24,761 nucleotides of DNA from assembly GCA_015231715.1 (NCBI GenBank), contig JADGBB010000022.1, positions 1 to 24,761 on the forward strand. The letters are read 5' to 3'. The stretch comes from Candidatus Omnitrophota bacterium (lineage in GTDB: Bacteria; Omnitrophota; Koll11; Tantalellales; Tantalellaceae). A model generated the notes under the pieces. The model was not told the DNA's origin and did not search any database. It was given only the letters and a program-made list of their open reading frames with translations. A program made the translations under genes and the position numbers. Within the stretch, counting starts at the first letter, position 1. Each line of letters starts with the position of its first letter. Positions 11,995 to 23,219 of the stretch are shown here, piece after piece.

Positions 11995-12010
11995 GATGCC
12001 TAAAAACCGC
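11995..12010. repeat. Left target-site duplication of the IS
   Basis: GATGCCTAAAAACCGC here is repeated exactly at 13487-13502, immediately outside the two ends of the insertion sequence. It is a 16-bp direct repeat; a 17th base (T) is ambiguous because the element itself begins with T. Confidence 0.9.
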
Positions 12011-12057
12011 TGTAACACCAATGTGATAATGTCCTCTTTTACCAAAGTTAAAATGTC
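12011..12057. repeat. Left terminal inverted repeat of the IS
   Basis: Compared with the complement of 13440-13486, this end matches across most of its length. Differences cluster at positions 4-7 and 15-19, and a one-base gap lies before the TTTTACC segment. The inner 19 bp TTACCAAAGTTAAAATGTC are identical in both ends, probably the transposase binding part. Confidence 0.85.
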
Positions 12058-12098
12058 CGGTAACCCTGTTATAATTGTAACTCCAAAAGGAGGACAAT

Positions 12099-13421
12099 AT
12101 GATGGGAAAGGACATGATAACAATGAAGCAAAAAGAATTAAAACAGCTGCACATAATTCGCGAAGTATTGGAGAAGAGAATAAAGCAAAAAACCGCGGGA
12201 AAGATAGCGGGCTTAAGTGTAAGGCAATTAAGAAGGAAGCAGAAACGGGTACAAGTAGAGGGGAACAAGGGAATAATCCACAGATCGAGAGGGATGCCTA
12301 CGCATAATGATAGATTGAAAGGACAAAAAGAAAAGACAATACAGATATATCGAGATAAATACTGGGATTTTGGACCGACATTAGCGAGTGAGAAGCTTTT
12401 AGAGATAGATGAGATAAAAATAAGCGATGAAACGTTGAGGTTATGGTTAATAGAGAGTGGCGATTGGAAAAAGAGAAGAAAAGGAAGAAAGCATCGCAAC
12501 TGGAGAGAAAGAAAGGCACATTATGGAGAGATGGTGCAAGCGGACGGATCACATCATGAGTGGTTTGAAGATCGGGGGGATAAATGCGTTTTGATGGGAT
12601 ACATAGATGATGCTACAGGACGCACATATGGGAGGTTTTACGAGTATGAAGGCACAATTCCCGCGATGGATAGTTTTAAGAGATACATAAAGAAGTATGG
12701 CATACCGCAAAGTATATACATGGATAAGCATCCTACATACAAGAGCACAAAAAAACAGACAATAGAAGATGAGCTAGCCGATAGGAATGCGCTTAGCCAA
12801 TTTGAAAGAGCTGTAGAGGAGCTGGGAGTAGAGTTTATTCATGCGAATTCAGCACCGGCAAAAGGCAGGATTGAAAGGTTGTTCAAGACATTTCAAGATA
12901 GGCTCATAAAAGAGATGAGGTTAGCGGGTATAAGTTCGATAAAAGAAGGCAATGAATTTTTAGAGGAATACTTACCCAAATACAATAAGAGATTCGGAGT
13001 AGAAGCAGAAAAAGCACTGGATTTACACAGAGCAGTGCCGGAAGACATGAAACTTGACGCCATTCTATGCATCAAGGAACAAAGGGTCTTAAGGAACGAC
13101 TACACTGTATCATATAAAAACAAGTTCTATCAGGTATTGGTCCGGACAAATGCCAAGAAAGTAACAGTTGAAGAACGGATCTCTGGGAAGATTCACATAA
13201 GTTACAAAGGCAAATTGCTAAAGAGCAAAAGGATAGCTCAGCTACCTAAAAAAGAGCAAGCTGAGGTGAAGAAGGAATATAAAACGAAGGCACATATGCC
13301 GGCAGAGGGACATCCTTGGACGAAGTGGATAGATAGAGGTTATCCACAGAATTTAAGTTATTCACAAAGAAAGAAAAAAGAAGCAAAAAAGAAAGAAAAG
13401 CTACTACTACTAGTTCATTAA
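12099..13421 (+). CDS. DDE transposase of ISNCY/IS1202-like element
   Basis: This 440-aa protein catalyses movement of the surrounding insertion sequence. ATG 12099 has AGGAGG six bases upstream. The N-terminal third is a basic helix-turn-helix region (AGKIAGLSVRQLRRKQKRVQ). The catalytic RNase-H-like core has GEMVQADGSHHEWF (first Asp), MGYIDDATGRTYGRFY, SIYMDKHPTY (second Asp) and PAKGRIERLFKTFQDRL (Glu). DGSHHEWF and the IDDATGR motif are typical of ISNCY/IS1202-type enzymes. The C-terminal part is a beta-rich, lysine-rich region. The frame is intact and the D-D-E residues are present, so it may be active. Confidence 0.92.
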   Translation: MMGKDMITMKQKELKQLHIIREVLEKRIKQKTAGKIAGLSVRQLRRKQKRVQVEGNKGIIHRSRGMPTHNDRLKGQKEKTIQIYRDKYWDFGPTLASEKLLEIDEIKISDETLRLWLIESGDWKKRRKGRKHRNWRERKAHYGEMVQADGSHHEWFEDRGDKCVLMGYIDDATGRTYGRFYEYEGTIPAMDSFKRYIKKYGIPQSIYMDKHPTYKSTKKQTIEDELADRNALSQFERAVEELGVEFIHANSAPAKGRIERLFKTFQDRLIKEMRLAGISSIKEGNEFLEEYLPKYNKRFGVEAEKALDLHRAVPEDMKLDAILCIKEQRVLRNDYTVSYKNKFYQVLVRTNAKKVTVEERISGKIHISYKGKLLKSKRIAQLPKKEQAEVKKEYKTKAHMPAEGHPWTKWIDRGYPQNLSYSQRKKKEAKKKEKLLLLVH

Positions 13422-13439
13422 TATCAACAAAAAAAGAAG

Positions 13440-13486
13440 ACATTTTAACTTTGGTAAAAACCGGACACTTTAACATTGGCTTGACA
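13440..13486. repeat. Right terminal inverted repeat of the IS
   Basis: The complement of this end begins TGTCAAGCCAATGTTAAAG and includes the same inner TTACCAAAGTTAAAATGTC as the left end. The terminal three bases TGT/ACA match at both ends. Confidence 0.85.
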
Positions 13487-13502
13487 GATGCCTAAAAACC
13501 GC
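13487..13502. repeat. Right target-site duplication of the IS
   Basis: Exact second copy of the 16-bp sequence at 11995-12010. It abuts the rpmH -35 box, which starts at the next base. Confidence 0.9.
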
Positions 13503-13530
13503 TTGACTTAAAAATGACTTGTGTTATAAT
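13503..13530 (+). promoter_or_regulatory. rpmH: rpmH promoter
   Basis: TTGACT (13503-13508), 16 bp and TATAAT (13525-13530) form a strong sigma70-type promoter ahead of rpmH. The upstream boundary is the target duplication of the insertion sequence, so any A-tract UP element or operator further upstream in the ancestral sequence has been moved about 1.5 kb away. Confidence 0.75.
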
Positions 13531-13566: not shown

Positions 13567-13704
13567 GTGAAAAAGAATCTTAGAAATAAATCTAATACAA
13601 AAAGAACTCGCAAGCATGGTTTTATGAAAAGGAACGAAACCAAGTCCGGGCAGGAAATTCTTAGAAGAAGACGAAACAAAGGGCGCAAAGTTCTTTCCGC
13701 GTGA
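13567..13704 (+). CDS. rpmH: 50S ribosomal protein L34
   Basis: L34 is a small 23S rRNA-binding protein of the large subunit. The 45-aa product starts at GTG with AAGGAG upstream and shows the family pattern TKRTRKHGFMKR, then SGQEILRRRRNKGRKVLSA. The LSA end is the usual L34 C-terminus, so its TGA is a true stop, which matters for the in-frame TGA in parA. The TGA overlaps the GTG start of rnpA (GTGA), the standard rpmH-rnpA arrangement. It is too short for most ORF cut-offs. Confidence 0.96.
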   Translation: MKKNLRNKSNTKRTRKHGFMKRNETKSGQEILRRRRNKGRKVLSA

Positions 13705-14060
13705 GTAACTACATAAAAAGTGTACGTAAAACAGCAGAATTTAAGGAAGTATTTTCCCGTGGGAAAAAAATAAAAGGGAACCTATTTTCATTGTTTTACC
13801 TAGATAGCCACCAAACAGAAACATTTGACCTAGGAATAGTAACAAGGAAAAAATTATCAAAAAACGCTACACAGAGAAACTATTTAAAAAGGATAATAAA
13901 ATAGCATGTCAGGAAACAAGCAGACAAACTAAAGAAAAGAAAAAAAGCGGTTTTTTTACTGATAACTGATGTTAAAAAGATAAAAAAGAAAGAAATAGCA
14001 AAAACCACAAGAGAAGACATAGATATCTTGCTGGATAAAGCGGCTTTGATCACAAAATGA
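13701..14060 (+). pseudogene. rnpA: Ribonuclease P protein component, interrupted by in-frame TAG
   Basis: RnpA binds the RNase P RNA and helps 5' processing of tRNA precursors. The frame opens at GTG 13701 (VSNYIKSVRKTAEFKEVFSRG), continues with LGIVTRKKLSKNATQRNYLKRIIK, then hits TAG at 13902-13904. After it the same frame carries HVRKQADKLKKRKKAVFLLI and stays open to TGA 14058-14060, which overlaps the yidD start. The total, 119 codons, is the normal RnpA length. The TAG falls in the RNR-motif helix at the position usually held by Glu (R-E-x-F/Y-R), so GAG to TAG would explain it. The 67-aa product would lack the end of the RNA-binding helix and the last strand and helix. Sequencing error, recent mutation or suppression are all possible. 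Confidence 0.88.
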
Positions 14061-16068: not shown

Positions 16069-16170
16069 ATACTTATCCCCTATTTGTGCACAACCTGTGG
16101 AAAAGATACCCCAAAACTACCATTTAAGGTTATTTTAATCAAAAAAACAACAATCAACCAGCAACAACAA

Positions 16171-16186
16171 GTTTCCACGTGGAAAC
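16171..16186. promoter_or_regulatory. parS-like site 1
   Basis: GTTTCCACGTGGAAAC is a perfect 16-bp palindrome sharing the CCACGTGG core and flanking TT/AA of known chromosomal parS sites (TGTTCCACGTGGAACA type). It lies 232 bp before parA. ParB bound here would load as a CTP-dependent clamp and organise the origin region. Confidence 0.85.
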
Positions 16187-16355
16187 CATCAAGACCCTTT
16201 ACCTCAACCCCCAATCACATCCGTCCTCCTGAAGATCAAAGCAACCATCATCCTAAGGAGCAAAGCGACGAAGGACCGCAGCCCAACTAACCCTAGATTT
16301 TTTGCCACGAACAGAACCTCATAAATACGTCAAAACAACAACAAGCAACCAACAA

Positions 16356-16383
16356 CAACAAGTTTCCACGTGGAAACTTGTTG
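16356..16383. promoter_or_regulatory. parS-like site 2, extended 28-bp palindrome
   Basis: The same 16-bp palindrome GTTTCCACGTGGAAAC occurs at 16362-16377, here extended by CAACAA on the left and TTGTTG on the right into a perfect 28-bp palindrome. Its right end overlaps the -35 of the parA promoter by three bases, so ParB binding would be expected to repress parAB. The shared left extension with site 1 (CAACAA) suggests duplication. Confidence 0.85.
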
Positions 16384-16417: not shown

Positions 16418-17179
16418 ATGAAGAAGATAGCCATATGTAATCAAAAAGGCGGAGTTGCAAAAACAACTACTGCTATCAATCTTTCAGCATATCTAGCCAT
16501 AAAAGGCAAGAAAACGTTATTGATAGATATGGATCCTCAGTGAAATGCAACAAGCGGTGTTGGAATAGAAAAAGAAAGTGTAGAAAACAGTGTGTATGAT
16601 GTGCTTCACGAACATATTGATATTAAAGAAGCAATTCTTAAAACTAAAATAGAAAACCTCTATGTCTTGCCGTCAGAGATTGGCCTAGCAGGCGCTGAAG
16701 TAGAACTAGTCAGCGCTATGGGAAGAGAATATAGGCTTAAAAAGGCAATAAGCTCTATGAAGGAACAATATGATTTTATCATAGTGGATTGTCCCCCATC
16801 TTTAGGTTTATTGACATTAAATGCTTTAGCTATGGTAAATAGTGTTATTGTTCCTGTTCAATGTGAATATTATGCTTTGGAAGGATTATCACAACTGATT
16901 AGCACAATTAATTTGATTCGGGATAATTTGAATAATTCTTTAGATATTGAAGGAATTCTTTTTACAATGGCAGATTTCAGGACTAACTTAACAAAAGAAG
17001 TTATTTCCGAAGTACGGAGTCATTTTAAAGATAAAGCTTATGAAACAGTAATTCCAAGAGCAATAAAACTAACCGAAGCACCAGGGTTCGGCCAACCAAT
17101 AGCAACATATGATCAAGCTTCTTTGGGAGCGATAAGATACAATGAATTGACCGAAGAGCTGTTAAGAAAACAAAAATGA
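16418..17179 (+). pseudogene. parA: Chromosome partition ATPase ParA/Soj, interrupted by in-frame TGA
   Basis: ParA is the Walker-type ATPase that positions origins with ParB. The frame from ATG 16418 reads [20 protein letters not shown] (deviant Walker A, with Ala in KGGVAKTT), then [11 protein letters not shown] (16541-16543), NATSGVGIEKE. It continues with FIIVDCPPSLGLLTLNALA (Walker B region) and VPVQCEYYALEGLSQL, and ends TGA at 17177-17179. The total is 253 codons, the usual Soj length. The TGA replaces the Gly of DPQGN, so GGA to TGA would explain it. Without readthrough the products are a 41-aa piece and a C-terminal piece from ATG 16592 at best, which lacks the ATP-binding loop. It is followed by intact parB. 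Confidence 0.9.
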
Positions 17180-17240
17180 AAACTTTAATCTCAAGCATAA
17201 AGCCTTGTGAATAAAAAACTTATAGAAGCGGAGGATGACA

Positions 17241-18155: not shown

Positions 18156-18170
18156 GTAACAAGATATTAA

Positions 18171-18203
18171 CCTTTTAACTTGGTCCTGAGAGGCTGAAAA
18201 AGG
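18171..18203 (+). promoter_or_regulatory. PyrR-binding hairpin (anti-antiterminator)
   Basis: CCTTTT (18171-18176) pairs with AAAAAGG (18197-18203). The loop and upper stem contain GGTCCTGAGAGGCTG (18182-18196), which matches the known PyrR-binding consensus (A/G-TCC-n-GAGAGG-C/T-T). In Firmicutes, PyrR with UMP stabilises this hairpin and so favours the downstream terminator. The presence of pyrR 100 bp downstream supports the call. Confidence 0.88.
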
Positions 18204-18211
18204 AGAAAAAA

Positions 18212-18241
18212 ATGAAAATTATTGAAAAGACCTTCTTGTAA
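18212..18241 (+). CDS. Putative 9-aa leader peptide in pyr attenuator
   Basis: ATG 18212 with AAGGAG (18200-18205) six bases upstream opens a frame reading MKIIEKTFL and stops at TAA (18239-18241). The Shine-Dalgarno lies in the 3' strand of the PyrR hairpin, and codons 5-10 make up the 5' arm of the terminator, so a translating ribosome would block terminator formation. It may be a fortuitous ORF; its good ribosome site and placement argue for a second look. Confidence 0.45.
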   Translation: MKIIEKTFL

Positions 18242-18265
18242 CTCGAACAAGAAGGTCTTTTTTTT
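18225..18265 (+). terminator. pyr attenuator terminator
   Basis: AAAAGACCTTCTTGT (18225-18239) pairs perfectly with ACAAGAAGGTCTTTT (18247-18261), with a 7-nt loop and eight U residues (18258-18265). It is a classical intrinsic terminator between the PyrR hairpin and pyrR. CCTTCTT in its 5' arm can pair imperfectly with AAAAAGG of the PyrR hairpin, a weak candidate antiterminator. Confidence 0.92.
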
Positions 18266-19818: not shown

Positions 19819-19918
19819 AAGGGATAAAAAATTTCGGGTCCTGCCATCGTTCCAACTTTGTGTGTTTTTGCAAAACACACAAAGTTTCCACCATGTCACC
19901 CAAAATTTTTTACCCCTT
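19819..19918. repeat. Nested palindromic element, copy 1 (pyrB-pyrC)
   Basis: A 66-bp core (19836-19901) starts GGGTCCTGCCATCG and ends CACCC. It has a perfect inner stem AACTTTGTGTGTTTT/AAAACACACAAAGTT (19854-19868, 19872-19886) and looser outer arms. Beyond the core, AAGGGATAAAAAATTT on the left (19819-19834) faces AAATTTTTTACCCCTT on the right (19903-19918), complementary at 15 of 16. Copies 2 and 3 share the core but not these outer arms. It could be a small non-autonomous mobile element, an mRNA stabiliser or a weak bidirectional terminator. Confidence 0.9.
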
Positions 19919-19956
19919 TTGACTAAAGGAATAGAAAAATAAAATAAAGGAAACCG

Positions 19957-21237
19957 ATGAAGATACTTATTAAGAATGGTGAGATTATTGATCCGTCACA
20001 AAAAATGGATCTTGTGAAAAAAGATATTTTAATTGAAAGCGGGAAGATCATTAAAATTGCCGCTTCAATTACTGATGACAAAGCCAAAGTTATTGATGCA
20101 AAGGGTAAATATGTTACACCCGGATTCATTGATATGCACACACACTTAAGAGAGCCCGGACGAGAAGACAAAGAAACAATTGAAACAGGATTGAGGGCAG
20201 CCGTAAAAGGCGGATTTACAACGGTTTGCGCAATGCCGAACACACAGCCCGCCTGCGATACGGCGTCAGGCGTTAAGTATGTTATCTCACGAGCAGAAGA
20301 ATTAAAAAGCGCTAATGTTTATCCGGTCGGTACGATCACTAAAGAAAGAAAAGGTAAAGAGATCTCCGAGATGTCAGATTTAAAAGAGGCCGGAGCAAAA
20401 GCAGTAAGTGACGACGGCTCAAGCGTGGAAAACGCAGAGCTTATGAGAAAGGCAATGGAATACGCGAGAATGTTAGACCTTTTGGTTATTTCTCATGCGG
20501 AAGTTGAGTCACTTGTAGCAAACGGGGTTATGCATGAAGGATATTATTCGACAGTGTTAGGGTTAAAGCCAATCCCGTCATTGTCTGAAAGCATTATGGT
20601 GGAAAGGGACATAGAGCTAGCGGCCTTGACCGGGGCGAGATTGCACATAGCTCATGTCTCAGCAAAGGAAAGTGTCGAAGCGATAAGAAAAGCGAAAAAA
20701 AATAAAATTAAAGTTACAGCCGAAACAACTCCGCATCACTTAACGCTTACAGATGAATCACTGAAAAACTATGACACCAATAAAAAAGTAAACCCGCCGT
20801 TAAGAAGCAAAGAAGACAGAGATGCTTTAAGAAAAGGAATAAAAGACGGAACCATTGATGTAATAGCTACTGACCACGCGCCGCACATGGAAAATGAAAA
20901 AGAACAGGAATTTGACAACGCTCCTTTTGGAATGATAGGGCTAGAGACAGCACTGCCATTGTGTGTTAGAAGCCTTATTGCAACAGGCTATCTCGAATGG
21001 TACGGCCTAATAGAGAAATTGACATTAAATCCAAAGCAGATCCTTGGATTGGAAGAAGAAGGAACCTTACTAGAAGGAACAAAAGCCGACATAACTATAA
21101 TTGACCCGACAGCAGAATGGGTGTATACAAAAGAAGAAATAGAATCCAAATCCAGTAACTCTCCTTTCATCGGAGCTAAAATGACATCAAAAGTAGTAAC
21201 GGTTATCGCCAATGGGAAAATAGTTTATGGGAACTAA
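19957..21237 (+). CDS. pyrC: Dihydroorotase (class I)
   Basis: PyrC cyclises carbamoyl-aspartate to dihydroorotate. The 426-aa amidohydrolase starts MKILIKNGEIIDP and has the metal-binding GFIDMHTHLREPGREDKE, ISHAEV, HIAHVSAKES, AETTPHHLTL and VIATDHAPH motifs, with a small beta domain at both ends. The length fits bacterial class I enzymes. AAAGGA precedes the ATG. It lies 38 bp after the right arm of palindrome copy 1, and overlaps pyrK by 11 bp. Confidence 0.96.
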   Translation: MKILIKNGEIIDPSQKMDLVKKDILIESGKIIKIAASITDDKAKVIDAKGKYVTPGFIDMHTHLREPGREDKETIETGLRAAVKGGFTTVCAMPNTQPACDTASGVKYVISRAEELKSANVYPVGTITKERKGKEISEMSDLKEAGAKAVSDDGSSVENAELMRKAMEYARMLDLLVISHAEVESLVANGVMHEGYYSTVLGLKPIPSLSESIMVERDIELAALTGARLHIAHVSAKESVEAIRKAKKNKIKVTAETTPHHLTLTDESLKNYDTNKKVNPPLRSKEDRDALRKGIKDGTIDVIATDHAPHMENEKEQEFDNAPFGMIGLETALPLCVRSLIATGYLEWYGLIEKLTLNPKQILGLEEEGTLLEGTKADITIIDPTAEWVYTKEEIESKSSNSPFIGAKMTSKVVTVIANGKIVYGN

Positions 21238-22021
21238 AAAACAAATAGTTACGGGAACAATAAAAGAGAATATAGAAATATCCCCGAACCTTTTTATAAT
21301 GAAGATCGAAGAAACAAAGATCTGCAAAGAGGCTAAGCCCGGGCAATTCGTTAACATAAAACTAACAGACAGCGGAAGCGACCCCTTACTTCGAATACCA
21401 TTAGGAATTTACAACTGTGAAAAAAACGGATTAAGCCTTATGTATAAAGTTGTAGGAGAAGGAACAACGATCCTTTCAAAAAAGAAAAAAAATGAAACAA
21501 TAAATATTTTAGGCCCGATCGGCAACGGATTTAACATCCGGGAAAAAACCAAAAACTCGCATGCAATACTAGTAGCAGGAGGCTGCGGTTTCCCTCCTTT
21601 ATCATTTTTAGCGAATGAGCTGAAGAAAAAAAGAATAAAAACAACTTTTCTAATGGGAGCAAGCGGCAAAGACCACATAAGCTGTTGCCTGCCGTTAGCC
21701 GGAAAAGAAACAGATGTATACATATCAACAGACGACGGATCCATAGGAAAAAAAGGAACAGCAGTAGATCTGCTAAAAGAAATCCTAGCAAACAAAAAAA
21801 ACAATGGAACCGAAACAATTATATACGCCTGCGGCCCGGGGAAAATGCTGGAAAACGTAAGCAAAACAGCCAAGGCGCACAACATACAAACACAAATATC
21901 AGTAGAAGAATACATGGCCTGCGGAATAGGCGCCTGCAAAGGCTGTGCAATAAAAACAAAACAAGGAATAAAACTAGTCTGCAAAGACGGCCCAGTATTC
22001 AACGCGGAAGATATTTATTAA
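21227..22021 (+). CDS. pyrK: Dihydroorotate dehydrogenase electron transfer subunit
   Basis: PyrK carries FAD and a [2Fe-2S] cluster and passes electrons from dihydroorotate, through PyrD, to NAD. The 264-aa protein has a ferredoxin-reductase-like FAD domain (LLRIPLGIYNCEKNGLSLMY, VVGEGT), a nucleotide domain (AILVAGGCGFPPLSFLA, YACGPGKML), and a C-terminal cluster segment EYMACGIGACKGCAI with a fourth Cys in LVCKDGPVF. Its ATG overlaps the end of pyrC. Palindrome copy 2 separates it from pyrD. Confidence 0.95.
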   Translation: MGTKKQIVTGTIKENIEISPNLFIMKIEETKICKEAKPGQFVNIKLTDSGSDPLLRIPLGIYNCEKNGLSLMYKVVGEGTTILSKKKKNETINILGPIGNGFNIREKTKNSHAILVAGGCGFPPLSFLANELKKKRIKTTFLMGASGKDHISCCLPLAGKETDVYISTDDGSIGKKGTAVDLLKEILANKKNNGTETIIYACGPGKMLENVSKTAKAHNIQTQISVEEYMACGIGACKGCAIKTKQGIKLVCKDGPVFNAEDIY

Positions 22022-22053
22022 AGAAGGAAGTGCGTTTTTTAAAAGATGAAGAG

Positions 22054-22151
22054 CGCTAAAAAATTTGTGGGTGACATGGTGTAAACTTTGTGTGTTTTGC
22101 AAAAACACACAAAGTTGGAACGATGGCAGGACCTACAAATTTTTCGTAGCG
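22054..22151. repeat. Nested palindromic element, copy 2, inverted (pyrK-pyrD)
   Basis: The core (22069-22134) is the reverse complement of copies 1 and 3 with only a few changes. Its outer arms are different again: CGCTAAAAAATTTGT (22054-22068) faces ACAAATTTTTCGTAGCG (22135-22151), complementary apart from a 2-nt bulge. The pyrD ribosome binding site begins five bases after the right arm. Confidence 0.9.
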
Positions 22152-22168
22152 AGCTAAAGGACTTATAA

Positions 22169-23095
22169 ATGAATTTAAAAATAAATATTGCCGGAGTAAC
22201 CTTTAAGAACCCCGTTTGGCCAGCTTCAGGCACCTTCGGCCACGGAGAAGATTTCACAGACTTTTTCGACATAAACAAACTAGGCGCAATAGTAACAAAA
22301 ACAATCACGCTAAACGAAAGGGTCGGCAACCCAACTCCAAGAATAGTAGAAACTCCATCAGGAATGCTAAACGCTATAGGCCTTGAAAACAAAGGCCTGA
22401 AGGGTTTTATTAACGAAACCGCTCCATTTTTAAAAAAAGTTAAAACAAGGATTGTTATAAGTGTTGCAGGCTCAACACAAACCGAACTAGAAGAATGTGT
22501 TTTGGAATTATTAAAAAATTATATACCGGACGCAATAGAGATAAATCTGTCATGCCCTAATGTTCAGCACAAAGGAACAAAAACAAGACTTTTTTCCCAA
22601 GATGCAGATACCGTAAAAACAATAGTAAAAAGCATAAAGAAAAAAACAAAAGAAAAATGTTTACTAATAAGCAAACTAACACCGAATGTGACAGACATAT
22701 CAGCAATAGCCCAAGCAGCAGAACAAGGCGGAAGTGATGCCGTTAGCCTTGTGAACACATACCTAGGAATGAAAATAGACATAAACAAAAAGAAACCTTT
22801 TCTAGGAAACATCCAAGGCGGATTATCAGGCCCCGCAATAAGACCAATGGCCGTAAGAGCAGTATGGGATACATACAAAACAATAAAGATCCCAATAATA
22901 GGAATGGGCGGAATAATGACAGGTCCCGACGCCCTAGAATTCATCCTAGCCGGCGCAACATCAATCCAAGTAGGCACCGCCAACTTCATAAACCCCACAG
23001 CAACAATAAATGTGCTTGAAGGGATAGAAGAATATTTGAAAGGAAACAAAGAAAAGAATATAAAGACACTTGTTGGAGCAGCACAAAATATATGA
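22169..23095 (+). CDS. pyrD: Dihydroorotate dehydrogenase, catalytic subunit (class 1B)
   Basis: PyrD oxidises dihydroorotate to orotate with FMN. The 308-aa barrel protein has FKNPVWPASGTFGHGEDF near the N-terminus, a long MLNAIGLENKG loop, EINLSCPNVQHKGT with the catalytic Cys of class 1 enzymes, LISKLTPNVTD, and the FMN phosphate site IPIIGMGGIMTGPDALEFI with AGATSIQVGTANF. The adjacent pyrK supports class 1B (NAD-linked). AAAGGA precedes the start; the stop is TGA. Palindrome copy 3 follows. Confidence 0.96.
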   Translation: MNLKINIAGVTFKNPVWPASGTFGHGEDFTDFFDINKLGAIVTKTITLNERVGNPTPRIVETPSGMLNAIGLENKGLKGFINETAPFLKKVKTRIVISVAGSTQTELEECVLELLKNYIPDAIEINLSCPNVQHKGTKTRLFSQDADTVKTIVKSIKKKTKEKCLLISKLTPNVTDISAIAQAAEQGGSDAVSLVNTYLGMKIDINKKKPFLGNIQGGLSGPAIRPMAVRAVWDTYKTIKIPIIGMGGIMTGPDALEFILAGATSIQVGTANFINPTATINVLEGIEEYLKGNKEKNIKTLVGAAQNI

Positions 23096-23117
23096 TTTTG
23101 AGAGAGGGAGACTAGAA

Positions 23118-23219
23118 GAGGCAAGAAAATTTTTCGGGTCCTGCCATCGTTCCAACTTTGTGTGTTTTTACAAAACACACAAAGTTTCCACCATGTCACC
23201 CAAAAAATTTTCTTACCTC
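23118..23219. repeat. Nested palindromic element, copy 3 (pyrD-pyrF)
   Basis: The core (23136-23201) differs from copy 1 by a single base in the loop (A for G at 23170). The outer arms are GAGGCAAGAAAATTTTT (23118-23134) and AAAAATTTTCTTACCTC (23203-23219), complementary except one position and unrelated to copy 1 beyond A/T tracts. pyrF starts 41 bp downstream. Confidence 0.9.

What the first reader, a model, noticed from the sequence alone, without database searches (positions are those of the whole stretch)
19819..23219. Nested palindromes: one 66-bp core inside three different self-complementary frames
Three gaps in the pyr operon (19819-19918, 22054-22151, 23118-23219) carry a nearly identical 66-bp core, inverted in the second. 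The flanking 15-17 bp differ among copies (AAGGGAT..., CGCTA..., GAGGCAAG...) yet each left flank pairs with its own right flank. Ordinary target duplications are direct, not inverted, so this is not a simple insertion scar. Either the core inserts at the centre of existing hairpins, or the outer stems covary to keep a long RNA or DNA hairpin. Both would make it an undescribed MITE-like or structural family.
Basis: partly seen in the sequence, partly recalled or inferred. Interest (0 to 1): 0.85.

Follow-up and report, generated by a model that had tools for sequence, protein, structure and literature searches.

The report
Flavo-1-like palindromic repeats in pyr operon
Three near-identical hairpin-forming repeats sit between pyrimidine-synthesis genes of an uncultured bacterium; they resemble a high-copy hairpin repeat known from Bacteroidota (Flavo-1), and each copy's stem tends to match itself rather than its sister copies.

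Summary
Three copies of a 66-67 bp quasi-palindromic core (1-3 differences pairwise) lie in three pyr-operon gaps, the middle one inverted, each inside self-complementary arms. The inner 9-10 bp of the arms is an A-run/T-run alike in all copies; only the outer 5-8 bp is copy-specific, with modest support (two of three copies). 'Undescribed' is unlikely: the core is a strand-specific, divergent relative of Rfam Flavo-1 (RF01705), a high-copy hairpin repeat of Bacteroidota. It scores below Rfam's cut-off, but a model built here from 15 Flavo-1 copies ranks exactly these three first in the window (E 1e-4 to 2e-3), and pair-preserving shuffles of copy 1 never reach its similarity (0 of 1500); some other tests failed. 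By its proteins the contig is Omnitrophota. In Bacteroidota relatives, stems at one orthologous site are replaced by unrelated self-complementary sequence, once by another dispersed palindrome, and counted stem changes are nearly all two-sided. Best reading: a REPIN/MITE-like dispersed palindrome whose arms are rewritten together at DNA level (template switching), perhaps with selection. Insertion into existing hairpins is not excluded. No Omnitrophota genome could be searched, so copy number, empty sites and arm covariation there are untested.

The parts
19819..19918 (-). copy 1 of the element (hairpin with arms), pyrB-pyrC gap; strand = core orientation (GGGTGACATGG...)
19836..19902 (-). core of copy 1 (67 nt compared; the Rfam Flavo-1 match spans 19833-19928)
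19819..19825 (+). copy-specific outer arm AAGGGAT of copy 1, pairs with 19912-19918 (6 of 7; the seventh is G-U on the core strand)
19912..19918 (+). partner outer arm of copy 1
22054..22151 (+). copy 2 (inverted relative to copies 1 and 3), pyrK-pyrD gap
22068..22134 (+). core of copy 2 (Rfam Flavo-1 match 22063-22137)
22054..22058 (+). outer arm CGCTA of copy 2, pairs with TAGCG 22147-22151 across a 2-nt bulge (CG, 22145-22146)
   Evidence: not supported by the scoring
22147..22151 (+). partner outer arm of copy 2
23118..23219 (-). copy 3, pyrD-pyrF gap
23136..23202 (-). core of copy 3 (best Rfam Flavo-1 match, 23133-23207, 27.8 bits)
23118..23125 (+). outer arm GAGGCAAG of copy 3, pairs with CTTACCTC 23212-23219 (7 of 8; the eighth is G-U on the core strand)
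23212..23219 (+). partner outer arm of copy 3

Best explanation
The three copies belong to a dispersed, non-coding palindromic repeat related to Bacteroidota Flavo-1, here in an Omnitrophota genome (relationship: shown by tests below the Rfam cut-off, with some failed tests; Omnitrophota: inferred from two proteins). It behaves like a REPIN/MITE: it spreads in either orientation and survives in gaps between operon genes (position between stop and next start codon: shown; mobility: inferred). The conserved part is the hairpin shoulder with its internal loops (GGA opposite GGA or GNA around a GT/AC step). Stem sequence is free, but the two arms of one copy stay complementary to each other. The most likely cause is DNA-level template switching: the nascent strand folds back at the hairpin and copies one arm into the other, sometimes extending into the flank, which makes each copy self-complementary and unlike its sisters (inferred). 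The inverted middle core needs no more than insertion in the other orientation; flipping by template switching is possible, but documented only for much shorter spacers in what I read. Selection on the hairpin may help. If transcribed with the operon, each copy would put a hairpin of about 40 pairs between pyr cistrons, a plausible RNase III or stability site (inferred, untested).
For: Identity: Rfam RF01705 matches all three copies over the full model and only on the core strand: 27.8, 25.9 and 22.8 bits, E 0.0057, 0.019, 0.14 over 3.5 kb; the opposite strands, which make much the same hairpin, give no Flavo-1 match at E<=1 there or in the 271-base search around copy 3. Model R2, built from 15 Flavo-1 copies (several from one orthologous site), ranks the three copies first to third in the window, E 0.00012, 0.00056, 0.0017, core strand only. 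Best similarity of copy 1 to 89 Flavo-1 copies is 29 against 16.2+-2.1 in pair-preserving shuffles (0 of 1500); loops-only shuffles give P 0.0013 and 0.0007; the reverse complement scores 15.5. Genuine multi-copy relatives in genome G131 (57 matches at E<=0.1) score 28.1-36.6 bits in the rows printed, also below the 42-bit cut-off. Behaviour: 39 of 41 genomes of one genus have matches, up to 87 each, which is the number scored; sense/antisense indifference is published (PMC9723704, passage). At one orthologous site apical stems are unrelated between species yet self-complementary: in ten tips that I picked from 25 gaps, own arms pair at 56/74 and cross arms at 209/580 positions beyond the first four. 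At another site a stem differs by several complementary pairs while flanks align at 92.5% and 79%. Counted stem changes are mostly two-sided: 20 cells against 2 one-sided (24 of 40 fetched copies of one genome) and 33 against 3 (14 distinct copies). Published precedents, passages read: template switching homogenises inverted-repeat arms (PMC8604942) and can create and maintain hairpins (PMC8794818).
Against: The score is under Rfam's gathering cut-off. Sequence-only profiles of the two shoulders did not find the element: the right model gives E 42 at the element sites, rank 7 to 9, and the left model does not list them among the 12 rows printed. The model from our three copies found 3 of 29 Flavo-1 loci (E 0.0015, 0.062, 0.4) plus one unrelated hairpin at E 0.05, and nothing at E<=2 in 69 further sources, 58 of them single Flavo-1 loci. 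MicroRNA families match the same hairpin by shape, so E-values of hairpins are optimistic. The Flavo-1 CCTG/CAGG helix is absent here. In the relatives the most variable part is the apex, here the apex is constant and the outer arms vary, so the analogy is imperfect. No transposase linked to the element, no target duplication and no clean empty site was found; one copy missing from a sister contig is replaced there by another palindrome. PMC8794818 reports compensatory changes with loop inversion as extremely rare, and the spacer inversions in the passages of PMC8604942 are of a few bases, far from 67. With three copies, selection, template switching and target choice cannot be separated.
Confidence: 0.5

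Rival explanations
1. The core is a mobile palindrome that inserts at the centre (apex) of existing short palindromes or hairpins, so the outer arms are the pre-existing target.
For: Outer arms differ among copies, and those of copies 1 and 3 match their own partner. In a relative a second dispersed palindrome (24 places with up to 2 mismatches in genome G328, reversed-pattern control 0) sits in the apex of one Flavo-1 copy, while orthologous copies carry other tips.
Against: No empty palindrome of this type elsewhere in 24.8 kb: the list holds the three cores, the PyrR-site hairpin, a parS-like palindrome and two weak ones. The AAATTT next to the core sits at mirror-like offsets on both sides (sequence), not as a flush target duplication. 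The A/T part of the arms is alike in all copies.
Confidence: 0.2
2. A selected RNA (or single-stranded DNA) hairpin whose outer stem covaries: an intercistronic processing or stability element of the pyr mRNA, or an RNA made from the core strand.
For: Three copies in three of four non-overlapping gaps from pyrB to pyrE and none elsewhere in the window. Strong folding. The outer stems run through on the core strand with 2, 1 and 2 G-U pairs, while the opposite strands are interrupted and 13-15 kcal/mol weaker; with about four independent positions this bias is not significant. Strong covariation in relatives.
Against: Core orientation is antisense in two gaps and sense in one, so no single mRNA motif is shared. 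The relatives are reported as indifferent to orientation (PMC9723704, passage). G-U cells are rare in the counted relatives (2 of 528 and 3 of 275), which is fewer than I would expect of ordinary RNA stems (general knowledge, no control run). A single transition in a DNA palindrome gives G-U on one strand anyway.
Confidence: 0.18
3. One longer MITE of about 100 bp whose arms are homologous in all copies and have simply decayed, with the pairing left over from its original terminal inverted repeats.
For: Inner arm tract alike in all six arms; the outer parts of the left arms of copies 1 and 2 are weakly alike (P 0.035, best of 12 cross-copy comparisons).
Against: The core has 1-3 changes in 67 while the outer arms show no significant likeness between copies; decay would break pairing, not preserve it.
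Confidence: 0.12

Closest known systems
Flavo-1 RNA motif (Rfam RF01705; Weinberg et al. 2010, PMC2864571, passages seen)
   Same: strand-specific sequence of both hairpin shoulders (GTGGAAA ... TTGnAACGA..GC), hairpin with small internal loops; high-copy and orientation-indifferent in the relatives
   Different: below gathering score; lacks the CCTG/CAGG helix and part of the second internal loop; apex constant and outer arms variable (apex is the variable part in the relatives compared); Omnitrophota instead of Bacteroidota
REPINs / REP (GTAG, CGTC) repeats (PMC3116915, PMC3733652, passages seen)
   Same: short dispersed extragenic palindromes; conserved shoulders with a variable, pairing spacer and common compensatory changes
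   Different: no GTAG or CGTC tag shared by the copies, no RAYT among the window proteins scanned; longer unit
MITEs such as ERIC or Correia elements (review PMC10969869, passages seen)
   Same: intergenic, quasi-palindromic, tolerated inside an operon, both orientations
   Different: no target duplication and no parent insertion sequence identified; arms differ from copy to copy
Template-switch-maintained inverted repeats (PMC8794818, PMC8604942; nematomorph mitochondrial palindromes PMC6649704; passages seen)
   Same: arms of one palindrome match each other but differ between homologues
   Different: there inferred with phylogenies, and spacer inversions are of a few bases; here inferred from three copies plus distant relatives

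Membership tests
Flavo-1 (RF01705) | score at or above the Rfam gathering cut-off (42 bits) | tested here: not met
   best 27.8 bits; not listed in the window search at gathering threshold
Flavo-1 (RF01705) | full-length match to the model on one strand, beyond hairpin shape | tested here: met
   1-76/76 in all three copies, core strand only; pair-preserving shuffles of copy 1 0 of 1500, loops-only P 0.0013/0.0007; R2 model E 1e-4 to 2e-3 over positions 10-73 of 82
Flavo-1 (RF01705) | reciprocal recognition by a model of the new element | tested here: inconclusive
   E 0.0015, 0.062 and 0.4 for 3 of 29 loci plus one unrelated hairpin at 0.05; 0 matches at E<=2 in 69 further sources
Flavo-1 (RF01705) | shoulder motifs found by sequence-only profiles | tested here: not met
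Flavo-1 (RF01705) | outer CCTG/CAGG-type helix | tested here: not met
   GGGT/ACCC pairs instead and CAGG is unpaired
Flavo-1 (RF01705) | dispersed high copy number in the host genome | not testable with these tools
   no genome held for the window; three copies in 24.8 kb
REP/REPIN | terminal GTAG or CGTC tetranucleotide | tested here: not met
   no tag shared by the three copies; GTAG occurs in the right outer arm of copy 2 only; definition from PMC3733652 (passages)
REP/REPIN | associated RAYT (Y1) transposase | tested here: inconclusive
   none among the 19 window proteins scanned; rest of genome not held
MITE | terminal inverted repeats | tested here: met
MITE | target-site duplication | tested here: not met
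   no flush direct repeat above chance at the outer edges (P 0.80, 0.052, 0.14)
MITE | parent autonomous element | not testable with these tools
   one ISNCY transposase in the window; its ends, read by eye, show no evident likeness to the core (not scored)

The most novel reading that the evidence does not exclude
Flavo-1 and its Omnitrophota relative are not RNAs selected for structure but DNA palindromes that rewrite themselves. Template switching at the hairpin repeatedly copies one arm, and adjoining flank, into the other, so each copy becomes self-complementary with its own sequence, and foreign palindromes are accepted into stems. 'Covariation' as used to call structured RNAs would then arise without RNA selection.
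Probability: 0.25. Interest if true: 0.75.

Novelty: new variant of a known kind. Interest (0 to 1): 0.46.

Why it matters
It extends a poorly understood high-copy hairpin family (Flavo-1, described in 2010, with no function given in the passages I read) to another phylum. It also makes testable whether compensatory changes in such families come from RNA selection or from DNA template switching: few one-sided (G-U) intermediates among many copies of one genome is a checkable signature. If it is template switching, covariation alone is weak evidence for calling such repeats RNAs.

Tried and rejected
Known RNA families at curated cut-offs: only a PyrR site and a tRNA. PyrR-type regulation as explanation of the repeats: the PyrR site is a separate element at 18167-18265. 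Phage and plasmid records: no match to copy 1 and copy 2 respectively. Exact patterns of the core: 2 viral and 5 GTDB stretches, judged unrelated by eye because the letters between the two halves form no such hairpin; none; one hit whose context lacks the second half. PyrD relatives in viral contigs: none. Spurious ORFs across the core among 5.8 billion proteins: nothing at E<=10. Intrinsic terminators: none called at the copies. A shared left frame on the + strand with the core flipping inside it: no support (P 0.40-0.80). MIR2670 and other miRNA matches on the same hairpin were taken as hairpin likeness. Flavo-1 in other phyla: 0 of 119 and 0 of 120 genomes of the phyla of G001 and G005, and 0 of 14 control genomes; strict filters, so a copy as divergent as ours could be missed. 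A 17-letter piece of the core in the PMC library: 0 papers; a 20-letter piece of the nested GTCATTG repeat: 0 papers. The term Flavo-1: 4 papers; passages of three read, the fourth (PMC8210090) seen in the listing only. Omnitrophota with repeats or RNA motifs: listings only; PMC12306157 on REPs: passages, term 'omnitroph' absent.
Full report
What is there. The window is one whole contig of 24,761 bases (its own proteins are listed with that contig length) carrying rsmI, glmS, gyrA, gyrB, dnaN, dnaA, yidC, parA/parB and the pyr operon pyrR-B-C-K-D-F-E. Among the 120 best relatives listed, the organism names given for its DnaN are all Omnitrophota and those for its PyrD nearly all (exceptions: one Gammaproteobacteria, one Elusimicrobium). 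Three copies of one element lie in the pyrB-pyrC, pyrK-pyrD and pyrD-pyrF gaps. In 'core orientation' (GGGTGACATGGTG...GGAACGATGGCAGGACCC) copies 1 and 3 are on the minus strand and copy 2 on the plus strand. The cores differ at 1-3 of 67 positions, and no other copy is in the window. Apart from the three, the strong palindromes found (stem of 9 or more after penalties, loop up to 8) are the PyrR-site hairpin, a parS-like palindrome and two weak ones.

Checking the nested arms. Each copy folds into one long hairpin (39, 38 and 40 Watson-Crick plus 2, 1 and 2 G-U pairs). Outside the core the first 9-10 bp of both arms is an A-run followed by a T-run in all six arms, so this part is alike across copies. 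Only the outer 5-8 bp are copy-specific. Their pairing with their own partner is beyond chance for copy 3 (P 0.004-0.005) and copy 1 (P 0.013-0.03), not by my scoring for copy 2, which needs a bulge; jointly P = 0.0025. Cross-pairing between copies is poor in the outer part. No flush direct repeat exceeds chance at the outer edges. Outer-arm likeness between copies is not significant: the best of 12 cross-copy comparisons has P 0.035.

What it is related to. A relaxed Rfam scan matched RF01705, Flavo-1, over the full model in all three copies and only in core orientation, at 27.8, 25.9 and 22.8 bits against a cut-off of 42 (E 0.0057 for the best over 3.5 kb, which I scale to about 0.04 for the whole window). 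MicroRNA families also match the hairpin, by shape, so I tested further. Flavo-1 copies were collected from genomes reached through an earlier Bacteroidales locus: 21 of 148 genomes of that phylum have matches at E<=0.001, 16 over the cut-off, and 39 of 41 in one genus, with up to 87 (the number scored). Against 89 copies (29 loci, 40 of G131, 20 of G143) the core of copy 1 scores 29 (best) and 22.1 (mean of ten best); 1500 shuffles that keep every base pair and the loop composition give 16.2+-2.1 (maximum 24.5) and 13.5+-1.4 (maximum 20.6). Shuffling the loops alone gives P 0.0013 and 0.0007. Its reverse complement scores 15.5. The closest copy, L013, shares TTGGAAC-GAT-GCAGGA on the 3' shoulder and GTGGAAA on the 5' shoulder. 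A covariance model built here from 15 copies (R2; 14 distinct, several from one orthologous site) puts the three window copies first, second and third in the window with E 0.00012, 0.00056 and 0.0017, next best 0.03. Pooled with 19 other loci (302 kb) their E-values are 0.0014, 0.0068 and 0.021.

Results against. Sequence-only profiles of the two shoulders failed to pick the element. The model built from our three copies recognised 3 of 29 Flavo-1 loci, weakly, plus one unrelated hairpin, and nothing at E<=2 in 69 further sources, 58 of them single Flavo-1 loci (L145 and L146 were left out) and 11 contig stretches that hold copies too. One Flavo-1 helix is missing. I therefore call it a divergent relative, not a certified member. 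Multi-copy relatives in genome G131 also score only 28.1-36.6 bits in the rows printed, so the low score alone does not exclude it.

How such elements behave. A gap that holds a copy in G073 was followed through congeners and 25 orthologous gaps were printed. By eye, 16 have both shoulders, 4 have remnants or altered shoulders (L046, L049, L050, L052; L049 looks like an internal deletion) and 5 have no recognisable element (L055, L062, L065, L067, L068; too diverged to define an empty site). Among the 16, the apical stem is A/T-rich in some, CTCGTT/AACGAG in others, deleted in L044, and in L054 a different dispersed palindrome, GTCATTGCGAGGAACGAAGCAATC. That repeat occurs 24 times in its genome with up to two mismatches (reversed control 0); in the 23 distinct places printed, none is seen inside a Flavo-1 apex and 5 have an inverted partner nearby (by eye). 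For ten tips that I picked (near-duplicates, deleted and altered tips and two more, L051 and L053, left out), own arms pair at 56 of 74 positions beyond the first four, cross arms at 209 of 580 (ungapped). Comparing contigs of three close genomes (7, 4 and 2 copies found by a strict home-made search; R2 later found more in one of them), one stem differs by several complementary pairs between species whose flanks align at 92.5% and 79%, small foreign palindromes have entered one shoulder, and one copy is replaced in a sister by another palindrome; no clean empty site with a target duplication was seen. In 24 of the 40 fetched copies of G131 (copies with long tips or a different outer frame were left out of this alignment) 99.6% of cells are standard pairs, with 20 two-sided, 2 one-sided and 2 broken cells; in 14 distinct diverse copies 97.1%, 33, 3 and 8 (cells count sequences, not events). 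Shuffled controls never reached these covariation scores (0 of 500 each).

Mechanism. Two-sided changes with few G-U intermediates point to correction of one arm by the other at DNA level. Template switching in inverted repeats is reported to homogenise arms and to invert spacers (PMC8604942, passages; the inverted spacers shown there are of a few bases), to create and maintain hairpins (PMC8794818, passages; compensatory change with loop inversion was extremely rare) and was proposed for palindromes that change in concert (PMC6649704, passages). Applied to the window: a recently spread core with arms that match their own partner is expected; the inverted middle copy is explained as easily by insertion in the other orientation. 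On the plus strand the left outer arms of copies 1 and 3 are purine-rich like the neighbouring sequence (0.875 against 0.125 for the right arms; flanks 0.65-0.78), which would fit copying from left to right; copy 2 shows no such skew (0.625 and 0.625). This step is inference. Insertion into existing hairpins remains possible, since nesting of one palindrome in another is seen in a relative. REPINs show the same mix of conserved shoulders and variable pairing spacers (PMC3116915, passages).

Limits. No Omnitrophota genome could be searched, so copy number, empty sites and covariation in the home lineage are untested. Flavo-1 is listed for Bacteroidetes only in the original table (PMC2864571, passages); I found none in 119 and 120 genomes of two other phyla but cannot exclude records elsewhere.

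Noticed in passing
16418-17191: A parA-like frame opens at 16418 but has an in-frame TGA (16541) where a glycine is usual after DPQ (recalled motif); the called ORF starts only at 16592. Sequencing error, pseudogene or recoding is open.
   Followed up: partly
13701-14060: A small frame after an rpmH-like ORF looks like rnpA (both names recalled, not searched) and carries an in-frame TAG at 13902; with the parA stop it makes two interrupted housekeeping-type genes within 3 kb.
   Followed up: partly
11995-13503: An ISNCY-type transposase (12099-13421) is flanked by a 17-bp direct repeat GATGCCTAAAAACCGCT (11995 and 13487), apparently its target duplication, about 300 bp upstream of the dnaA start.
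   Followed up: partly
16139-16377: Two copies of a 48-nt repeat, each ending in the perfect palindrome GTTTCCACGTGGAAAC (16171, 16362), resembling parS (recalled), next to parA/parB.
   Followed up: no
L054 and loci L185-L214: GTCATTGCGAGGAACGAAGCAATC is a dispersed repeat in all four genomes tested (24, 16, 8 and 17 places); at 5 of 23 printed places an inverted partner lies nearby (REPIN-like); no paper in the held library has a 20-letter piece of it.
   Followed up: partly
L148-L162 (G073:C14) against G385:C26 and G181:C5: Gaps of close sister species can hold different palindromic repeats at the same place (a Flavo-1 copy against GAGACAAGTCGCGACTTGTC), as if some gaps or hairpins were landing places for palindromes.
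   Followed up: partly
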